A stretch of DNA of 32,205 bases, taken from an uncultured Thiodictyon sp. (GTDB lineage: Bacteria > Pseudomonadota > Gammaproteobacteria > Chromatiales > Chromatiaceae). A model generated the notes under the pieces. It saw only the letters and a list, made by a program, of their open reading frames with translations, had not been told where the DNA came from and ran no database searches. Both the position numbers and the translations under genes were made by a program. Shown in pieces: positions 11,805 through 17,541 of the stretch. Position 1 is the first letter of the stretch. Each line of letters starts with the position of its first letter. The stretch covers positions 1-32,205 of the forward strand of contig CAILVI010000506.1 in assembly GCA_903837595.1 (NCBI GenBank). Reading direction: 5' to 3'.

Positions 11805-11911
11805 GCGGCTGGTCGCCGCCGGCACCGCGGCGTTATGCTTGGTGGCGCGCGTCGACGCCCCAGGTGCAAGGGCGTCGGCAATCGATCAGCGATGACAGCG
11901 GAGAGCAAGAC

Positions 11912-13624
11912 ATGGACCCCTTGAGGCAGCAACTCCCCAAGACCCCGACCGGTATCGACGGGCTGGACGAGATCACCAGCGGCGGTCTGCCCACCGGGCG
12001 GCCGACCCTGATCTGCGGCGACGCGGGTTGCGGCAAGACCCTGATGGCGATGGAGTTCCTGGTGCGCGGTGCGACCCGCTTCAATGAGCCGGGGGTGTTC
12101 ATGGCCTTCGAGGAGACGTCCGAAGAGCTGACCCAGAATGTCGCTTCGCTCGGCTTCGACCTCAAGGCTCTGAGCGCGCAGGGTCAACTGGCTCTGGATT
12201 TCGTGTACCTGGAGCCCAGCGAGATCGAGGAGACCGGGGAGTTCGATCTGGGCGGCCTGTTCGTGCGGCTCGGCTATGCCATCGATTCGATCGGCGCCAA
12301 GCGCGTGGTGCTCGATACCATCGAGACCCTGTTCGCCGGCCTGCCCAACCCCATGATCCTGCGCGCGGAGCTGCGCCGCCTGTTCCGCTGGCTCAAGGAC
12401 AAGGGCGTGACCGCCATTATCACCGGCGAGCGCGGCGAGGGTCAGTTGACACGGCAGGGCTTGGAAGAGTACGTGTCGGACTGCGTGATCGTGCTCGACC
12501 ACCGCCCGGTCAACCTGATCTCGACCCGACGACTACGCGTGGTCAAGTACCGCGGCTCGACCCACGGGACCAACGAATACCCCTTCCTGATCGATGAGGA
12601 TGGCATTTCGGTCCTGCCCATCACCTCGCTTGGCCTGGATCATCACGTCTCCACCGAACGGGTCTCCAGCGGCATCCCACGCCTCGACGCCATGCTCGCC
12701 GGGGCGGGCTTCTACCGCGGCACCAGTGTACTGGTCTCAGGGACCGCGGGGACGGGCAAGAGCAGTCTGGCCGGTCATTTTGCCGCGGCCGCCTGTGCCC
12801 GGGGCGAGCGCGTGCTCTATTTCGCCTTCGAGGAATCCCCCAACCAGGTCGTCCGTAATATGGGCTCGATCGGGATCGATCTGGGGCGCTGGGTCGCACA
12901 ATGCCTGCTCCAGTTCCAGGCCGTCCGCCCCACCTTTGCCGGCCTGGAGTTGCACCTGACGACCATGCATAAGGCGATCGATCGCTTCAAGCCGCACATC
13001 GTGGTCGTCGACCCCTTGAATAGCTTCATCAGCGCGGGCAATGAGACCGAGGTCAAGGCCATGCTGATCCGCCTGGTCGATTACCTGAAGATGAATGAGA
13101 TCACCGGCTTCTTCACCAGCCTGACCACCGGCGGCAGCGCGCTCGATCATACCGATGCCGCCATTTCATCCCTGATCGACACCTGGCTGCTGCTCATCGC
13201 CGTCGAGGGGGGCGGTGAGCGCAATCGCGCCCTGAGCATCCTGAAATCGCGCGGCATGGCCCACTCGAACCAGACCCGCGAGTTCCTGATCACCGATCAG
13301 GGGGTGGAGGTGTGCGATGTCTATGCCGGTCCGGGCGGGGTCTTGACCGGCTCCGCGCGGCTGGCCCAGGAGGCGCGGGAGCGGGCGGACGACGTGGTAC
13401 GGCGGCAGGACATCGAGCGTCAACAACGCGAATTGGAAAGGAAACGCGCGACCCTGGAAGCACAGATCGCCGCCCTGCGGCTGGATTTCGCCGCCCAGGA
13501 GGCCGACGCGCTGGCCCTGATTGAGCGCGAACAGGCGCGGGAGTCGCAATTGGCACAGGAGCGCATGGACATGGCCTGGAGCCGCAAGGCCGATGTGGCG
13601 AGCGATACGGAGGGTCCGCAATGA
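11912..13624 (+). CDS. kaiC: KaiC circadian-clock family ATPase/kinase (570 aa)
   Basis: KaiC is a double RecA-fold ATPase that times cellular processes by slow ATP hydrolysis and autophosphorylation. Two complete domains are visible. CI has Walker A GDAGCGKT (36-43) and the Glu pair in FEETS (67-68). CII has Walker A GTAGTGKS (277-284) and the Glu pair in FEESP (307-308). The phosphosite region reads [13 protein letters not shown], so the Ser-Thr pair of cyanobacterial KaiC1 is Ser419-Ser420. Both domains have the usual core length. After about residue 482 the protein carries an extra charged coiled coil (about 485-552) in place of the short cyanobacterial tail. The start at 11912 has GGAG ten bases upstream. 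The stop overlaps the next start (ATGA, 13621-13624). No kaiA is present. Confidence 0.96.
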
Positions 13625-13947
13625 CCCTGCTGCCCGCCGAGCCGGGCGCGGCACCGCCCCCTGACGCACCGGAGTTCTGGACCCTGCGACTCTATGTGGC
13701 TGGCCAGACCCCAAAGTCCATCACCGCCTTTGCCAACCTCCAGCGCATCTGTGAGGAGCACTTGGCCGGACGTTACCAAATCGAGGTCATCGATCTGCTG
13801 GTGCAACCCCAGCTGGCGCAGGGGGACCAGATCCTGGCGATCCCGACACTAGTTCGCAAACTACCCGAGCCGATGCGCAAGATCATCGGCGACCTGTCAA
13901 ACACGGATAAGGTATTAATTGGATTGGACCTGCTGCCGCGCGTCTGA
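13621..13947 (+). CDS. kaiB: KaiB family protein, first copy (108 aa)
   Basis: KaiB is a small fold-switching protein that binds the KaiC CI ring. After a Pro-rich N-terminus of about 18 residues the core is typical: [19 protein letters not shown], then [20 protein letters not shown], then [20 protein letters not shown], then KVLIGLDLL. The acidic tail of cyanobacterial KaiB is missing, and the protein ends LLPRV. It is translationally coupled to kaiC by a 4-base overlap. It keeps the IGDLS and VLIGLDLL signature most faithfully of the two copies. Confidence 0.95.
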
Positions 13948-14057
13948 AGCAAAGCGCCCCGCCGCCCGGAGTCCCAGCCCGCCCCCACCCGCGCCGACCT
14001 GGGCCACGCCGACAGTTGCCGGGTCCAGGCCGAACCTTACGTGAGGAACTTGTCACC

Positions 14058-14399
14058 ATGCCGACCGAAAATCCCCCAACGCCACCCCCGGCGACGGCCG
14101 ACCCAACGGTCAGCCAGCCGGCGCAGCCCTATGTCTTGCGCCTCTATGTCACCGGCGTGACGCCAAGATCGACGCACGCCATCGCCAACATCAAGACCAT
14201 CTGCGAGGAACACTTGCAAGGACGTTACCGGCTGGAGGTCATCGACCTCTACCAGCAGCCCCAACTCGCGCACGGCGAGCAGATCGTCGCCGCACCGACC
14301 CTCATCAAAGAACTGCCGCTGCCCCTGCGGCGGATCATCGGCGATCTCTCGAGCACGGAACGCGTCCTGGTCGGCTTGGATCTGCGCAAGGGTGGGTAG
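14058..14399 (+). CDS. KaiB family protein, second copy (113 aa)
   Basis: This is a second KaiB with the core LRLYVTGVTPRSTHAIANIK, then YRLEVIDLYQQPQLAHGEQI, then PTLIKELPLPLRRIIGDLSS and VLVGLDLRKGG. It is clearly homologous to the first copy but differs at many core positions, so it is an old duplicate rather than a recent one. The N-terminus has a Pro/Thr/Ala-rich stretch of about 25 residues. The start at 14058 has GAGGA about 11 bases upstream; a 110-base gap with no gene separates it from the first copy. Its TAG stop is immediately followed by the GTG start of the GGDEF/EAL gene. Confidence 0.93.
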   Translation: MPTENPPTPPPATADPTVSQPAQPYVLRLYVTGVTPRSTHAIANIKTICEEHLQGRYRLEVIDLYQQPQLAHGEQIVAAPTLIKELPLPLRRIIGDLSSTERVLVGLDLRKGG

Positions 14400-16577
14400 G
14401 TGACGCAAGCACCGGCATTGGACCCACTGGCCGCCGAGAACGAGGCCCTGCGCGCCCGCCTGGCGGAGGCCGAGGAGACCCTGCGCGCCATCCGCAACGG
14501 CGAGGTGGATGCCTTGGTTGTCTCCGGCAGCGACGGCGACCACGTCTTTACCCTCCAGGGGGCCGACTATCCCTACCGGGTACTGGTCGAGGAGATGAGC
14601 GAAGGGGCGATCATCCTGACCGCGGAGGGGGTGATCTTTTACGCCAACCGGCGCCTGGCCGAGATGCTGAAAACGCCGCTCGAACAGGTGATCGGTTCCG
14701 CCTGCGACCGTTGGATCGCCCCCGCCGACGCGGCGCCGTTCCGCGCCTTGCTCAACCGCACGAGCGCGCCCAGCCGCCAGCGCATGGAACTCACCCTGAG
14801 GGCCAGCGACGGGACCAATGTCCCCTGTTATCTCTCGGTCAGTTGCCTGCTGATCGGCGAGGTGCTGGGCTCATTTTGCGTGGTCGCCACCGATCTGACT
14901 GAGCAAAAACGCAGCGAAGCCATCCTGGCCGCGGAAAAGCTGGCGCGCCTGATCCTCGACCAGACCGCCGAGGCCATTGTGGTCTGCGACAACGCCTCGC
15001 GCATCATCCGCGCCAGCGCGGTGGCCTACCGGCTGTGCGGCGAGGACCCGCTCGATCAGCCGTTCGAGCGCGCCTTTGCCTTGGAACGGCCCGATGGCGC
15101 GGGCGTTTCGCTCGCGGACCTGCTCAGGGTCGGGGAGCAGCGCCGGGTCGAGGCCAAGCTGGAGCGACGCGGCGAGTTCTTCCATCTGGTGGTCAGCGTC
15201 GGCCCCCTAGTGGGTCCGCTGGGTGATAAGCTCGGCAGTGTCGTCACCCTGACCGACATCACCCAACGCAAGGCCGCAGAGGAGCAGATCGAGCGACTCG
15301 CCTTCTACGATCCACTGACCCGGCTGCCCAATCGGCGGCGGCTGTTGGAACGGCTGCATCAGGCGGTAGAGACTGGCGCCCGCAGCCGCAGGCCGGGCGC
15401 GCTGATGTTCATCGACCTGGACAATTTCAAGGTATTAAACGATACACTCGGACACGACGTCGGCGACCTGCTGCTCCAGCAGGCCGCCGGGCGTCTACTC
15501 GACTGCGTGCGCGAATCCGACACCGTGGCCCGCCTGGGCGGCGATGAGTTCGTGGTGATGCTGGAAGGGCTCGGCGAGCGCGCCGAGGCGGCCGCGGCCA
15601 AGGCCCAGGACATCGGGGTCAAGGTCCTGGCCGCACTCAATGAGCCCTACCAACTCGCCGATCACCGCTGTCACAGCACCGCCAGCCTCGGCATCACCCT
15701 GATCGCCGACCACCAGACGCCCGTCGAGGACCTGCTGAAACAGGCCGATCTGGCCATGTACCAGGCCAAGGCGGCCGGCCGCAACACCCTGCGCTTCTTC
15801 AATCCCGACATGCAGGCCGCACTGGAGGCCCGCAGCGCCCTGGAGACGCAGTTGCGCGACGGGCTGCGAGACGGCCAGTTCCTGCTGTATTACCAGGCGC
15901 AGGTGGACGACGCGGGGAGCCTCACCGGGGCCGAGGCACTGGTACGCTGGCAACACCCCCAGCGGGGGCTAATCACACCCTACGAGTTCATCCCGCTGGC
16001 CGAGGAGACCGGGCTGATACTCCCTCTTGGTCACTGGGTGCTGGAGAGCGCCTGCGGCCAACTGGCGGCCTGGGCGCACCAACCGCAGCGTGCCCACCTG
16101 ACCCTGGCGGTCAATGTGAGCGCCCGTCAGTTCCGCGACCCGGGATTTGTCGATCAGGTACGCACGGCACTCGCCGCGTCGGGCGCCGATCCGCACCGGC
16201 TCAAGTTGGAACTCACCGAGAGCCTGCTGCTCGAGGATGTCACGGACACCATCGCCAAGATGACCGCGCTCAAGTCGCTGGGCCTGGGGTTTTCACTCGA
16301 TGACTTCGGTACCGGGTATTCCTCACTGAGCTACCTGAAGCGCCTGCCCCTGGACCAGTTGAAGATCGACCAGTCCTTTGTCCGGGACGCACTCGACAAC
16401 CCCAACGACGCCGCAATTGTCCGCGCCATCCTGGCCCTGGCGCCCAATCTAAATCTCACGGTCATCGCCGAGGGGGTGGAGACGCAGGCCCAGCGCGCGT
16501 TTCTGATCGAGAACGGCTGCCGCGCCTTTCAGGGGTATCTGTTTGGGCGACCGGGACCGGCGGCGGCGCTGCCGTAG
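14400..16577 (+). CDS. PAS-PAS-GGDEF-EAL cyclic-di-GMP enzyme (725 aa)
   Basis: This is a probable bifunctional diguanylate cyclase/phosphodiesterase. It starts with GTG at 14400, abutting the second kaiB. Residues ~10-40 form a coiled coil ending in IRNGEVDALVV, a segment often found at the N-terminus of PAS sensor proteins linked to Kai loci. Two PAS domains follow (about 55-170 and 175-290). The GGDEF domain has intact GGDEF (about 380-384) and an RxxD inhibitory site five residues before it (RESD). The EAL domain has intact EAL (about 512), ELTES, LDDFGTGYSS (about 632) and AEGVET. No transmembrane segment is seen, so it is cytoplasmic. Both catalytic halves look active by motif. Its place in the operon suggests that Kai proteins or the PAS ligand set c-di-GMP output. 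Confidence 0.94.
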   Translation: MTQAPALDPLAAENEALRARLAEAEETLRAIRNGEVDALVVSGSDGDHVFTLQGADYPYRVLVEEMSEGAIILTAEGVIFYANRRLAEMLKTPLEQVIGSACDRWIAPADAAPFRALLNRTSAPSRQRMELTLRASDGTNVPCYLSVSCLLIGEVLGSFCVVATDLTEQKRSEAILAAEKLARLILDQTAEAIVVCDNASRIIRASAVAYRLCGEDPLDQPFERAFALERPDGAGVSLADLLRVGEQRRVEAKLERRGEFFHLVVSVGPLVGPLGDKLGSVVTLTDITQRKAAEEQIERLAFYDPLTRLPNRRRLLERLHQAVETGARSRRPGALMFIDLDNFKVLNDTLGHDVGDLLLQQAAGRLLDCVRESDTVARLGGDEFVVMLEGLGERAEAAAAKAQDIGVKVLAALNEPYQLADHRCHSTASLGITLIADHQTPVEDLLKQADLAMYQAKAAGRNTLRFFNPDMQAALEARSALETQLRDGLRDGQFLLYYQAQVDDAGSLTGAEALVRWQHPQRGLITPYEFIPLAEETGLILPLGHWVLESACGQLAAWAHQPQRAHLTLAVNVSARQFRDPGFVDQVRTALAASGADPHRLKLELTESLLLEDVTDTIAKMTALKSLGLGFSLDDFGTGYSSLSYLKRLPLDQLKIDQSFVRDALDNPNDAAIVRAILALAPNLNLTVIAEGVETQAQRAFLIENGCRAFQGYLFGRPGPAAALP

Positions 16578-16662: not shown

Positions 16663-17541
16663 TCAGCCGCGAAAGTTCCGCAGGTAGGCAGCGAACTGCT
16701 CCCCGAGTTGCGGATGGGCCAAGCCGTACTCGACTGTCGCCTCAAGATACCCGAGCTTGCTGCCGCAGTCGTAGCGCTTGCCCTGGAAGGGATAGGCGAT
16801 CACCGTCTCATATTCGAGCAGGGCGGCAATCCCATCCGTCAATTGAATCTCGCCGCCGGCCCCGGTGTCGGTCTTCTCGAGCAGATCGAAAATTCGCGGT
16901 GTCAGCAGATAGCGCCCCACTACCGCCAGGTTCGACGGCGCATCCTCCGGAGCGGGCTTCTCAACGATGGAGATGACGCGCATGCAGCCGCCCGGCCCGG
17001 GCTCCACTTCGACAATTCCATATTGCCGGGTATCCTCCCGCGGAACCTCCTGTACGGCCAGCACACTGCACTCATGGCGCGCGTAAATGTCGGCCATCTG
17101 CGCCACCACACCCTTGCCCTCGTCGTCGCCGGTGATCAGATCGTCCGCCAGCAGCACATAGAATGGGTTATCGCCCACCACGGGTTCGGCGCAGAGTACG
17201 GCATGCCCCAGACCCCGGGGGTCGGGCTGGCGCAAATAGATACAACGCGCATGGGACGGCAGGATATTCTGGACGATACTCAACAGCTCCTTCTTACCCG
17301 CACTCTCCAACGCGGCCTCCAGCTCGTAGGCTGAGTCAAAGTGGTCTTCAATGGAGCGTTTATTACGACCGGTAATAAAGATGAGCTGATCGACCCCGGC
17401 CTTCTCGGCCTCCTCGGCGGCATACTGGATCAGCGGCTTGTCCACCACCGGCAGCATCTCTTTGGGGCTCGCCTTGGTGGCGGGCAGGAACCGCGTGCCG
17501 AGCCCGGCAACGGGGAATACTGCCTTGCGGATCTTTTTCAT
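16663..17541 (-). CDS. galU: UTP--glucose-1-phosphate uridylyltransferase (292 aa)
   Basis: The enzyme makes UDP-glucose from UTP and glucose 1-phosphate for lipopolysaccharide, exopolysaccharide and storage sugars. The N-terminal nucleotide-binding signature is complete ([20 protein letters not shown]), as are [15 protein letters not shown] and [13 protein letters not shown]. Length is typical for bacterial GalU. The start ATG at 17541 has GGAGAG about a dozen bases upstream on the minus strand. It faces the GGDEF/EAL gene tail to tail with an 85-base gap and lies downstream of lapB in the same direction, 82 bases apart. Confidence 0.97.

What the first reader, a model, noticed from the sequence alone, without database searches (positions are those of the whole stretch)
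11912..16577. Kai timing module wired to a dual-motif c-di-GMP enzyme
kaiC, two kaiB genes and a PAS-PAS-GGDEF-EAL gene lie head to tail with overlapping or abutting junctions (ATGA; TAG|GTG). KaiA is absent. In many bacteria outside the cyanobacteria, KaiBC neighbours are histidine kinases; here the only output-like gene is a predicted c-di-GMP enzyme with intact GGDEF, RxxD and EAL motifs. The arrangement suggests day/night or hourglass control of c-di-GMP, for example over motility or biofilm in a phototroph.
Basis: partly seen in the sequence, partly recalled or inferred. Interest (0 to 1): 0.7.

Follow-up and report, generated by a model that had tools for sequence, protein, structure and literature searches.

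The report
Kai timer genes with c-di-GMP output
A purple sulfur bacterium carries timekeeping genes in a row with an enzyme gene for a common bacterial signal molecule, and the start of that enzyme looks like a conserved adapter that in other microbes joins the same timer genes to quite different outputs.

Summary
The operon is real: kaiC, two kaiB genes and a PAS-PAS-GGDEF-EAL gene lie head to tail; one correction is a 113-bp gap between the kaiB genes. The genome has no KaiA match and has reaction-centre genes. KaiC is of the KaiA-independent Rhodobacter sphaeroides type. Of 32 such family loci, 17 are followed by GGDEF-EAL, 12 by a histidine kinase, 1 by neither, 2 are cut. The kaiCBB/GGDEF link is already in print (PMC5944118, PMC3164672). 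What seems new is the enzyme's first ~54 residues (called NTE here) plus PAS1. NTE follows kaiB in 80 of 84 kaiB-bearing loci and 0 of 9 kaiB-less ones with enough sequence. All 46 near-full-length NTE matches in three genome samples lie beside kaiB; 26 of these were not in the profile. Behind it the output varies: kinase, GGDEF-EAL, HD-GYP, sigma-54 activator, or nothing. One MAG fuses KaiB to NTE-PAS-GGDEF-EAL. Best reading: NTE-PAS is a Kai-reading adapter, here driving a c-di-GMP enzyme. Binding, enzyme direction and rhythm are untested.

The parts
11912..13624 (+). kaiC (570 aa), R. sphaeroides KaiC type; CII site region reads [10 protein letters not shown] (Ser-Ser)
   Evidence: PRK09302 734.5 bits; best solved relative 8dba/8fwi/8db3, E 1.6e-208, aligned 8-558 to 5-554; site string
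13367..13621 (+). C-terminal extension of KaiC, presumed coiled-coil tail (approximate start, by alignment)
   Evidence: aligned with the tail of 8dba; in that protein the C-terminal extension forms the dodecamer coil (PMC10076222, abstract and passages)
13621..13947 (+). kaiB1 (first-type KaiB)
   Evidence: PF07689 96.4 bits; first-type 205.3 vs last-type 154.3 bits
13948..14060 (+). 113-bp gap between kaiB1 and kaiB2
   Evidence: coordinates
14061..14399 (+). kaiB2 (last-type KaiB); stop TAG at 14397-14399, in the same reading frame as the next gene
   Evidence: PF07689 90.9 bits; last-type 199.1 vs first-type 164.2; in-frame single stop
14400..16577 (+). fourth gene, NTE-PAS-PAS-GGDEF-EAL, 725 aa
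   Evidence: Pfam PAS, GGDEF 166.7 bits, EAL 251.2 bits
14424..14585 (+). NTE, the kaiB-linked N-terminal element (residues 9-62)
   Evidence: profile A4; near-full-length matches beside kaiB in every case found
14589..14912 (+). PAS1 (residues 64-171)
   Evidence: PF08448 E 1.1e-14; modelled PAS fold, mean pLDDT 87.4
15300..15785 (+). GGDEF domain; RxxD at 15510-15521, GGDEF at 15537-15551
15849..16553 (+). EAL domain; EAL motif at 15933-15941; the catalytic-type residues checked are intact
16663..17541 (-). convergent nucleotidyltransferase gene that bounds the unit
   Evidence: PF00483 E 1e-29

Best explanation
The locus is a KaiA-less Kai timer of the R. sphaeroides type with its own output protein. 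KaiC and KaiB would respond to the day/night energy state, as reported for R. sphaeroides. The head of the fourth protein (NTE helix and hairpin plus PAS1) would read the KaiB or KaiB-KaiC state, and the GGDEF-EAL module would turn this into a change of c-di-GMP. Shown: the gene row, its conservation, the near-exclusive link of NTE to kaiB, different output domains behind one head, one KaiB-NTE fusion, intact catalytic motifs. Inferred: NTE-KaiB contact, direction (synthesis or breakdown), daily rhythm, and the target behaviour.
For: Domains and motifs. RsKaiC-type KaiC with tail. GGDEF-EAL in 17 of 32 window-type family loci, histidine kinase in 12, neither in 1, cut by contig ends in 2. NTE in 80 of 84 kaiB-bearing and 0 of 9 kaiB-less loci with at least 2500 bp downstream. 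Near-full-length NTE matches beside kaiB: 33 of 33 in 194 family genomes, 10 of 10 in 398 phylum genomes, 5 of 5 in 385 genomes of another class; 46 distinct, of which 20 are themselves rows of the profile and 26 are not. Three loci keep kaiB plus NTE-kinase without kaiC in the fetched stretch (L182, L184, L185). Natural fusion KaiB-NTE-PAS-GAF-GGDEF-EAL (L129). L048: head 64-72% identical to GGDEF-EAL relatives, C-terminus best to a kinase at 46%. R. sphaeroides KD131, the strain of the solved KaiBC, has NTE on its downstream kinase (E 6e-16 in a small search).
Against: The AlphaFold model of the natural fusion gave no confident KaiB-NTE contact (pTM 0.47). All 9 kaiB-less loci fall in one 13-row group of the KaiC tree, and two kaiB-bearing loci of that same group (L138, L161) also lack NTE, so the kaiB/NTE association in that table may be one lineage event; L061 and L141 are the other kaiB-bearing loci without NTE. 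Among 24 single-kaiB loci with NTE the kept KaiB is first-type in 14 and last-type in 10, so no single KaiB paralog is the obligate partner. The profile was built only from kai-linked proteins, so remote NTE relatives elsewhere could be missed; five partial matches lie away from intact kaiB. One relative has a frameshift in the fourth gene (L043). Many named loci, the fusion included, are metagenome bins. No expression, binding or enzyme data.
Confidence: 0.6

Rival explanations
1. NTE-PAS is an input module: PAS senses redox, oxygen or a ligand and passes this to the Kai proteins, while the attached enzyme or kinase is a second branch.
For: Among the 50 Foldseek matches shown, the modelled NTE-PAS1 resembles sensor PAS domains such as FixL and DosP. 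PMC5520375 and PMC10931921 (passages) mention the suggestion that the R. sphaeroides kinase carries a redox signal to KaiBC. Stand-alone NTE-PAS proteins without an output exist (14 loci).
Against: Output domains vary behind the head, which is odd if the head only feeds the clock. Cofactor-binding residues were not tested.
Confidence: 0.2
2. Plain operon hitch-hiking: co-expression only, with NTE a general N-cap of PAS proteins and no contact with Kai proteins.
For: Gene order alone cannot show contact; NTE is predicted as a simple helix and hairpin; no confident contact in the fusion model.
Against: NTE beside kaiB in 46 of 46 near-full-length matches, fused to KaiB once, and truncated in the one lineage whose kaiC-kaiB shrank to a remnant (L194).
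Confidence: 0.15
3. c-di-GMP turnover feeds back on the Kai proteins rather than serving as output.
For: Altering c-di-GMP shifts the period and phase in S. elongatus (PMC13001216, passages).
Against: The same passages report no effect of c-di-GMP on the KaiB-KaiC binding rhythm and no consistent effect on KaiC phosphorylation in vitro; the same slot holds kinases or a sigma-54 activator elsewhere.
Confidence: 0.05

Closest known systems
R. sphaeroides KaiBC (KaiC2 subgroup; PDB 8dba, 8fwi, 8db3)
   Same: KaiC of near-equal length with the tail, Ser-Ser sites, kaiC-kaiB followed by an NTE-PAS protein; no KaiA per PMC10076222
   Different: One kaiB and an HWE histidine kinase there; two kaiB genes and GGDEF-EAL here
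kaiCBB plus diguanylate cyclase of Thiodictyon syntrophicum Cad16 (PMC5944118, passage seen)
   Same: Same gene set in a Chromatiaceae bacterium; the authors suggest synchronised flotation
   Different: The passage says nothing of NTE, output exchange or wider spread
kaiC contexts of De Luca et al. 2011 (PMC3164672, section 17 read)
   Same: States that kaiC-kaiB clusters outside cyanobacteria almost all have a histidine kinase or GGDEF/EAL protein immediately downstream
   Different: Its RtaNt head belongs to kaiB-less kaiC-kinase pairs; NTE is not described in that section
SasA and CikA of cyanobacteria (domain make-up recalled, partly)
   Same: Proteins that read the Kai state and drive an output
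   Different: SasA has a KaiB-like N-terminal domain and CikA a pseudo-receiver; NTE is a predicted helix and hairpin before PAS, and the window protein has no KaiB-like Pfam match

Membership tests
KaiC2 / RsKaiC-type KaiC | Two RecA-like KaiC domains | tested here: met
   PF06745 two stretches, 361.9 bits; PRK09302 734.5 bits; the cyanobacterial-type equivalog TIGR02655 is below its cut-off, 358.4 against 546.25
KaiC2 / RsKaiC-type KaiC | Two serines at the phosphorylation site and a C-terminal extension of about 50 aa | tested here: met
   [10 protein letters not shown]; end-to-end alignment with 8dba; definition from PMC10076222 (passage)
KaiC2 / RsKaiC-type KaiC | Dodecamer and KaiA-independent autophosphorylation | not testable with these tools
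   needs protein
KaiB | KaiB domain | tested here: met
   PF07689 96.4 and 90.9 bits; both NCBIfam KaiB equivalogs are below their cut-offs (PRK09301 107.2 and 104.5 against 110; TIGR02654 99.5 and 99.6 against 145.3)
KaiB | Fold switching and binding to KaiC CI | not testable with these tools
   -
KaiABC circadian oscillator | KaiA present | tested here: not met
   0 matches in the own genome; S. elongatus rings as control
GGDEF-EAL c-di-GMP enzymes | Intact GGDEF, I-site RxxD and EAL catalytic residues | tested here: met
   window and 14 of the 15 relatives in A1 keep GGDEF and RxxD (L057 does not); EAL residues checked kept in 16 of 16
GGDEF-EAL c-di-GMP enzymes | Measured cyclase or phosphodiesterase activity | not testable with these tools
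   -
SasA-type Kai output kinase | KaiB-like domain plus histidine kinase | tested here: not met
   No KaiB or kinase domain in the fourth protein

The most novel reading that the evidence does not exclude
NTE-PAS is an undescribed, widespread Kai-reading adapter, found in bacteria and, by metagenome bins, in archaea, that plugs one KaiA-free timer into interchangeable outputs: phosphorelay, GGDEF-EAL, HD-GYP, sigma-54 transcription, or a stand-alone partner. Its docking partner is KaiB or the KaiB-KaiC complex, making it a third kind of Kai reader beside SasA and CikA.
Probability: 0.5. Interest if true: 0.82.

Novelty: new variant of a known kind. Interest (0 to 1): 0.66.

Why it matters
How Kai timers outside cyanobacteria pass on time is open (my reading of the papers seen). 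The R. sphaeroides KaiBC timer is solved structurally, but I saw no tested output for it. The NTE head gives a short, defined, testable candidate for the docking element, present in that very strain, and predicts that c-di-GMP, kinase and transcription outputs are alternatives on one socket. In this organism, with reaction-centre and gas-vesicle genes, it would give a direct path from day/night energy state to c-di-GMP.

Tried and rejected
Chance neighbour: rejected, the order recurs across genera and phyla. Glycerol-dehydrogenase-like gene upstream as part of the unit: not conserved; among 28 family window-type relatives with at least 1500 bp upstream of kaiC, a homologue in the fetched stretch was found in 1 (L042, a 123-aa reading frame), and the gene before it in none. 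KaiB-NTE docking by AlphaFold on the natural fusion: inconclusive; the first alignment for it (A5) looked misaligned and was replaced by A6. Foldseek of NTE-PAS1: the 50 matches shown are generic PAS domains. PDB sequence search with the head: best E 0.51. NTE on plasmids by single-sequence tblastn: no match at E 0.01, although an R. sphaeroides plasmid does carry an NTE by profile, so that search is too insensitive to count as a control. Exclusive KaiB2-NTE pairing: not supported. Promoter/terminator scan: 1 promoter-like site on the other strand against 0.5 expected; 8 terminator-like sites against 2.6 expected, none on the + strand just after the operon; one + strand site lies just before kaiC at 11814-11832.

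Dropped before counting: four named loci (L102, L103, L111, L119) that duplicate family loci; two of 62 family kaiC matches (G016, G071) never fetched; L073 left out of the 108 as a contig-end fragment; cut loci and the 4 kaiB-without-NTE loci left out of the count of output changes.

Literature: 10 searches, PubMed Central open-licence papers only. No description of the NTE head turned up in their listings or in the passages read, but no search targeted its sequence motif and most subscription papers are not held, so its novelty is not established.
Full report
What is there. On the + strand lie kaiC (11912-13624), kaiB1 (13621-13947), kaiB2 (14061-14399) and a PAS-PAS-GGDEF-EAL gene (14400-16577), followed by a convergent nucleotidyltransferase gene. 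kaiC and kaiB1 overlap by ATGA; 113 bp separate the two kaiB genes; kaiB2 ends TAG and the next gene starts GTG at once, in the same frame. The assembly (7.79 Mb, 576 contigs) has no KaiA match, 66 GGDEF domain matches, two reaction-centre matches and eight gas-vesicle matches. It bears the same genus code as G142, whose contig length and kaiC position equal those of Lamprocystis purpurea DSM 4197, so the window is from a Chromatiaceae phototroph (inference).

KaiC. The best solved relatives are R. sphaeroides KaiC entries (8dba, E 1.6e-208), aligned over residues 8-558 including the C-terminal extension. The phosphorylation region has two serines. By PMC10076222 (abstract and passages) these features mark the KaiC2 subgroup, whose tail forms a 12-helix bundle, a regulatory part later superseded by KaiA. 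So the absence of KaiA is expected.

Conservation. KaiC was found at E <= 1e-60 in 45 of 194 family genomes, 62 matches; 60 of the 62 were examined, counting the window. Of 32 loci with KaiC at least 48% identical to the window's, 17 are followed by GGDEF-EAL (one of these, L043, frameshifted), 12 by a histidine kinase, 1 (L061) by neither, and 2 are cut by contig ends. On a quick KaiC tree of 108 loci the window sits in a group of 20 (SH-aLRT 100): 16 GGDEF-EAL, 1 kinase, 2 cut, 1 without. GGDEF-EAL against other outputs needs at least 7 changes on that tree with cut and kaiB-without-NTE rows left out (41 of its 105 inner branches are weak), and at least 9 on a tree of the heads, of which well-supported branches force 4. 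Among the 16 proteins of alignment A1 (all family GGDEF-EAL loci but L043), 15 keep GGDEF and RxxD and all 16 keep the EAL residues checked; of the 22 GGDEF-EAL loci, the GGDEF pattern is missing in L057 and L121, and the late EAL-domain pattern AEGVE in L129.

Already in print. PMC5944118 (passage) reports a diguanylate cyclase beside kaiCBB in Thiodictyon syntrophicum and suggests synchronised flotation. PMC3164672 (section 17) says kaiC-kaiB clusters outside cyanobacteria almost all have a kinase or GGDEF/EAL protein downstream.

The shared head. GGDEF-EAL and kinase versions share about 54 residues before PAS1 (consensus xLxxENxxLRxRLxEAEETLxAIRxGEVDALVVSGxxGxQVFTLxGAxxPYRxL). Of 80 named loci (the best 80 of 578, many of them metagenome bins whose phylum labels may be wrong), 76 were counted after dropping 4 duplicates: 57 have NTE, 9 have neither kaiB nor NTE, 3 have kaiB without NTE, 7 are too short. 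Outputs over the 108 loci (32 family, 76 named): histidine kinase 40, GGDEF-EAL 22, stand-alone protein of 232-242 aa 14, HD-GYP 3, sigma-54 activator 2, no kaiB and no NTE 9, kaiB without NTE 4, cut 13, disrupted 1. Pfam was run on 13 of these proteins; the rest were classed by profiles made here. HD-GYP motifs and the 14 complete stand-alone frames. Of 93 loci with at least 2500 bp downstream, NTE is present in 80 of 84 with kaiB and 0 of 9 without; Fisher p 7e-10, not corrected for relatedness. All 9 sit in one 13-row group, and two kaiB-bearing loci of that group lack NTE too, so this table alone could reflect one lineage.

Is NTE special to kaiB? Profile A4 over 194 family genomes gave 36 matches: 33 near full length (at least 47 of 54 positions), all beside kaiB (29 at fetched kaiC loci; 4 more in L182-L185); of 3 partial ones, one is at a kai locus and two (L186, L187) are not. 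Over 398 genomes of the phylum: 12 matches, 10 near full length, all beside a KaiB match although only 38 of 398 genomes have KaiB; of two partial ones, one (L194) lies beside a shrunken kaiC-kaiB remnant and one (L195) has none. Over 385 genomes of another class: 6 matches, 5 near full length, all at kaiC-kaiB loci; one partial match, in a LysR-like gene, is not. Two matches (G000, G874) occur in two sets; 46 distinct near-full-length matches remain, all beside kaiB. Caveat: the profile was built from kai-linked proteins only.

Evidence for a direct link. L129, a metagenome bin, fuses KaiB in frame to NTE-PAS-GAF-GGDEF-EAL. In the window, L042, L043 and L045 a single stop codon in the same frame separates kaiB2 from the fourth gene. 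L182, L184 and L185 keep kaiB with NTE-kinase but no kaiC in the 16 kb fetched. In L048 the head matches Chromatiaceae GGDEF-EAL proteins best (64-72%) while the C-terminus matches kinases best (46%), an output exchange behind a kept head. In L194 NTE is truncated where kaiC-kaiB shrank to 78 aa. R. sphaeroides KD131, source of the solved KaiBC, carries NTE on its downstream HWE kinase (E 6e-16, for a small search).

Which KaiB? First and last kaiB are distinct paralogs, told apart in 124 of 124 cross-validated cases over 62 two-kaiB loci (related loci fall in both halves). The fused KaiB and the three lone ones are last-type; but among 24 single-kaiB loci 14 keep first-type (one of them L129, whose second KaiB is the fused one, and one near tie, L113) and 10 last-type, so exclusive pairing is not supported.

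Structure. The NTE-PAS1 model (mean pLDDT 87.4) is a long helix, a two-strand hairpin and a PAS fold; the Foldseek matches shown are generic PAS domains. The fusion model has no confident KaiB-NTE contact (pTM 0.47).

Mechanism offered. Kai state is read by NTE-PAS and converted to c-di-GMP change by GGDEF-EAL. The reading step, the direction and the daily rhythm are inference. Confidence 0.6 for this as output; the input-sensor rival has 0.2.

Noticed in passing
G000:C471 (L079:1134-6225): A second kai locus of another KaiC type in the same genome is also next to a PAS-GGDEF-EAL gene, without NTE: GGDEF-EAL (733 aa), a 365-aa protein with no Pfam match, kaiB, kaiC.
   Followed up: partly
L074, L075, L077, L078, L083: Divergent kaiC (about 40%) with kaiB followed by GGDEF-EAL genes that lack NTE: a separate Kai/c-di-GMP arrangement; L076 and L101 look similar (Pfam on L074, L083, L101).
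   Followed up: partly
L049 with L182; L054 with L185; L052 with L184: Genomes with two NTE proteins: kaiC-kaiB-GGDEF-EAL at one locus (cut at a contig end in L052) and a lone last-type kaiB with NTE-PAS-kinase at another, which suggests one timer with two outputs.
   Followed up: partly
L203: Stand-alone NTE-PAS (218 aa) followed by a separate GGDEF-EAL gene (496 aa); the kaiB between kaiC and it has an internal stop.
   Followed up: no
L136, L142, L147, L149, L153, L156, L157, L159, L178: Window-type kaiC, mostly in Ignavibacteria bins, with neither kaiB nor NTE downstream.
   Followed up: no
G000:C327 (L081:8302-8631): Another kaiB in the same genome, among histidine kinase and response-regulator genes without kaiC in the stretch fetched.
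   Followed up: no
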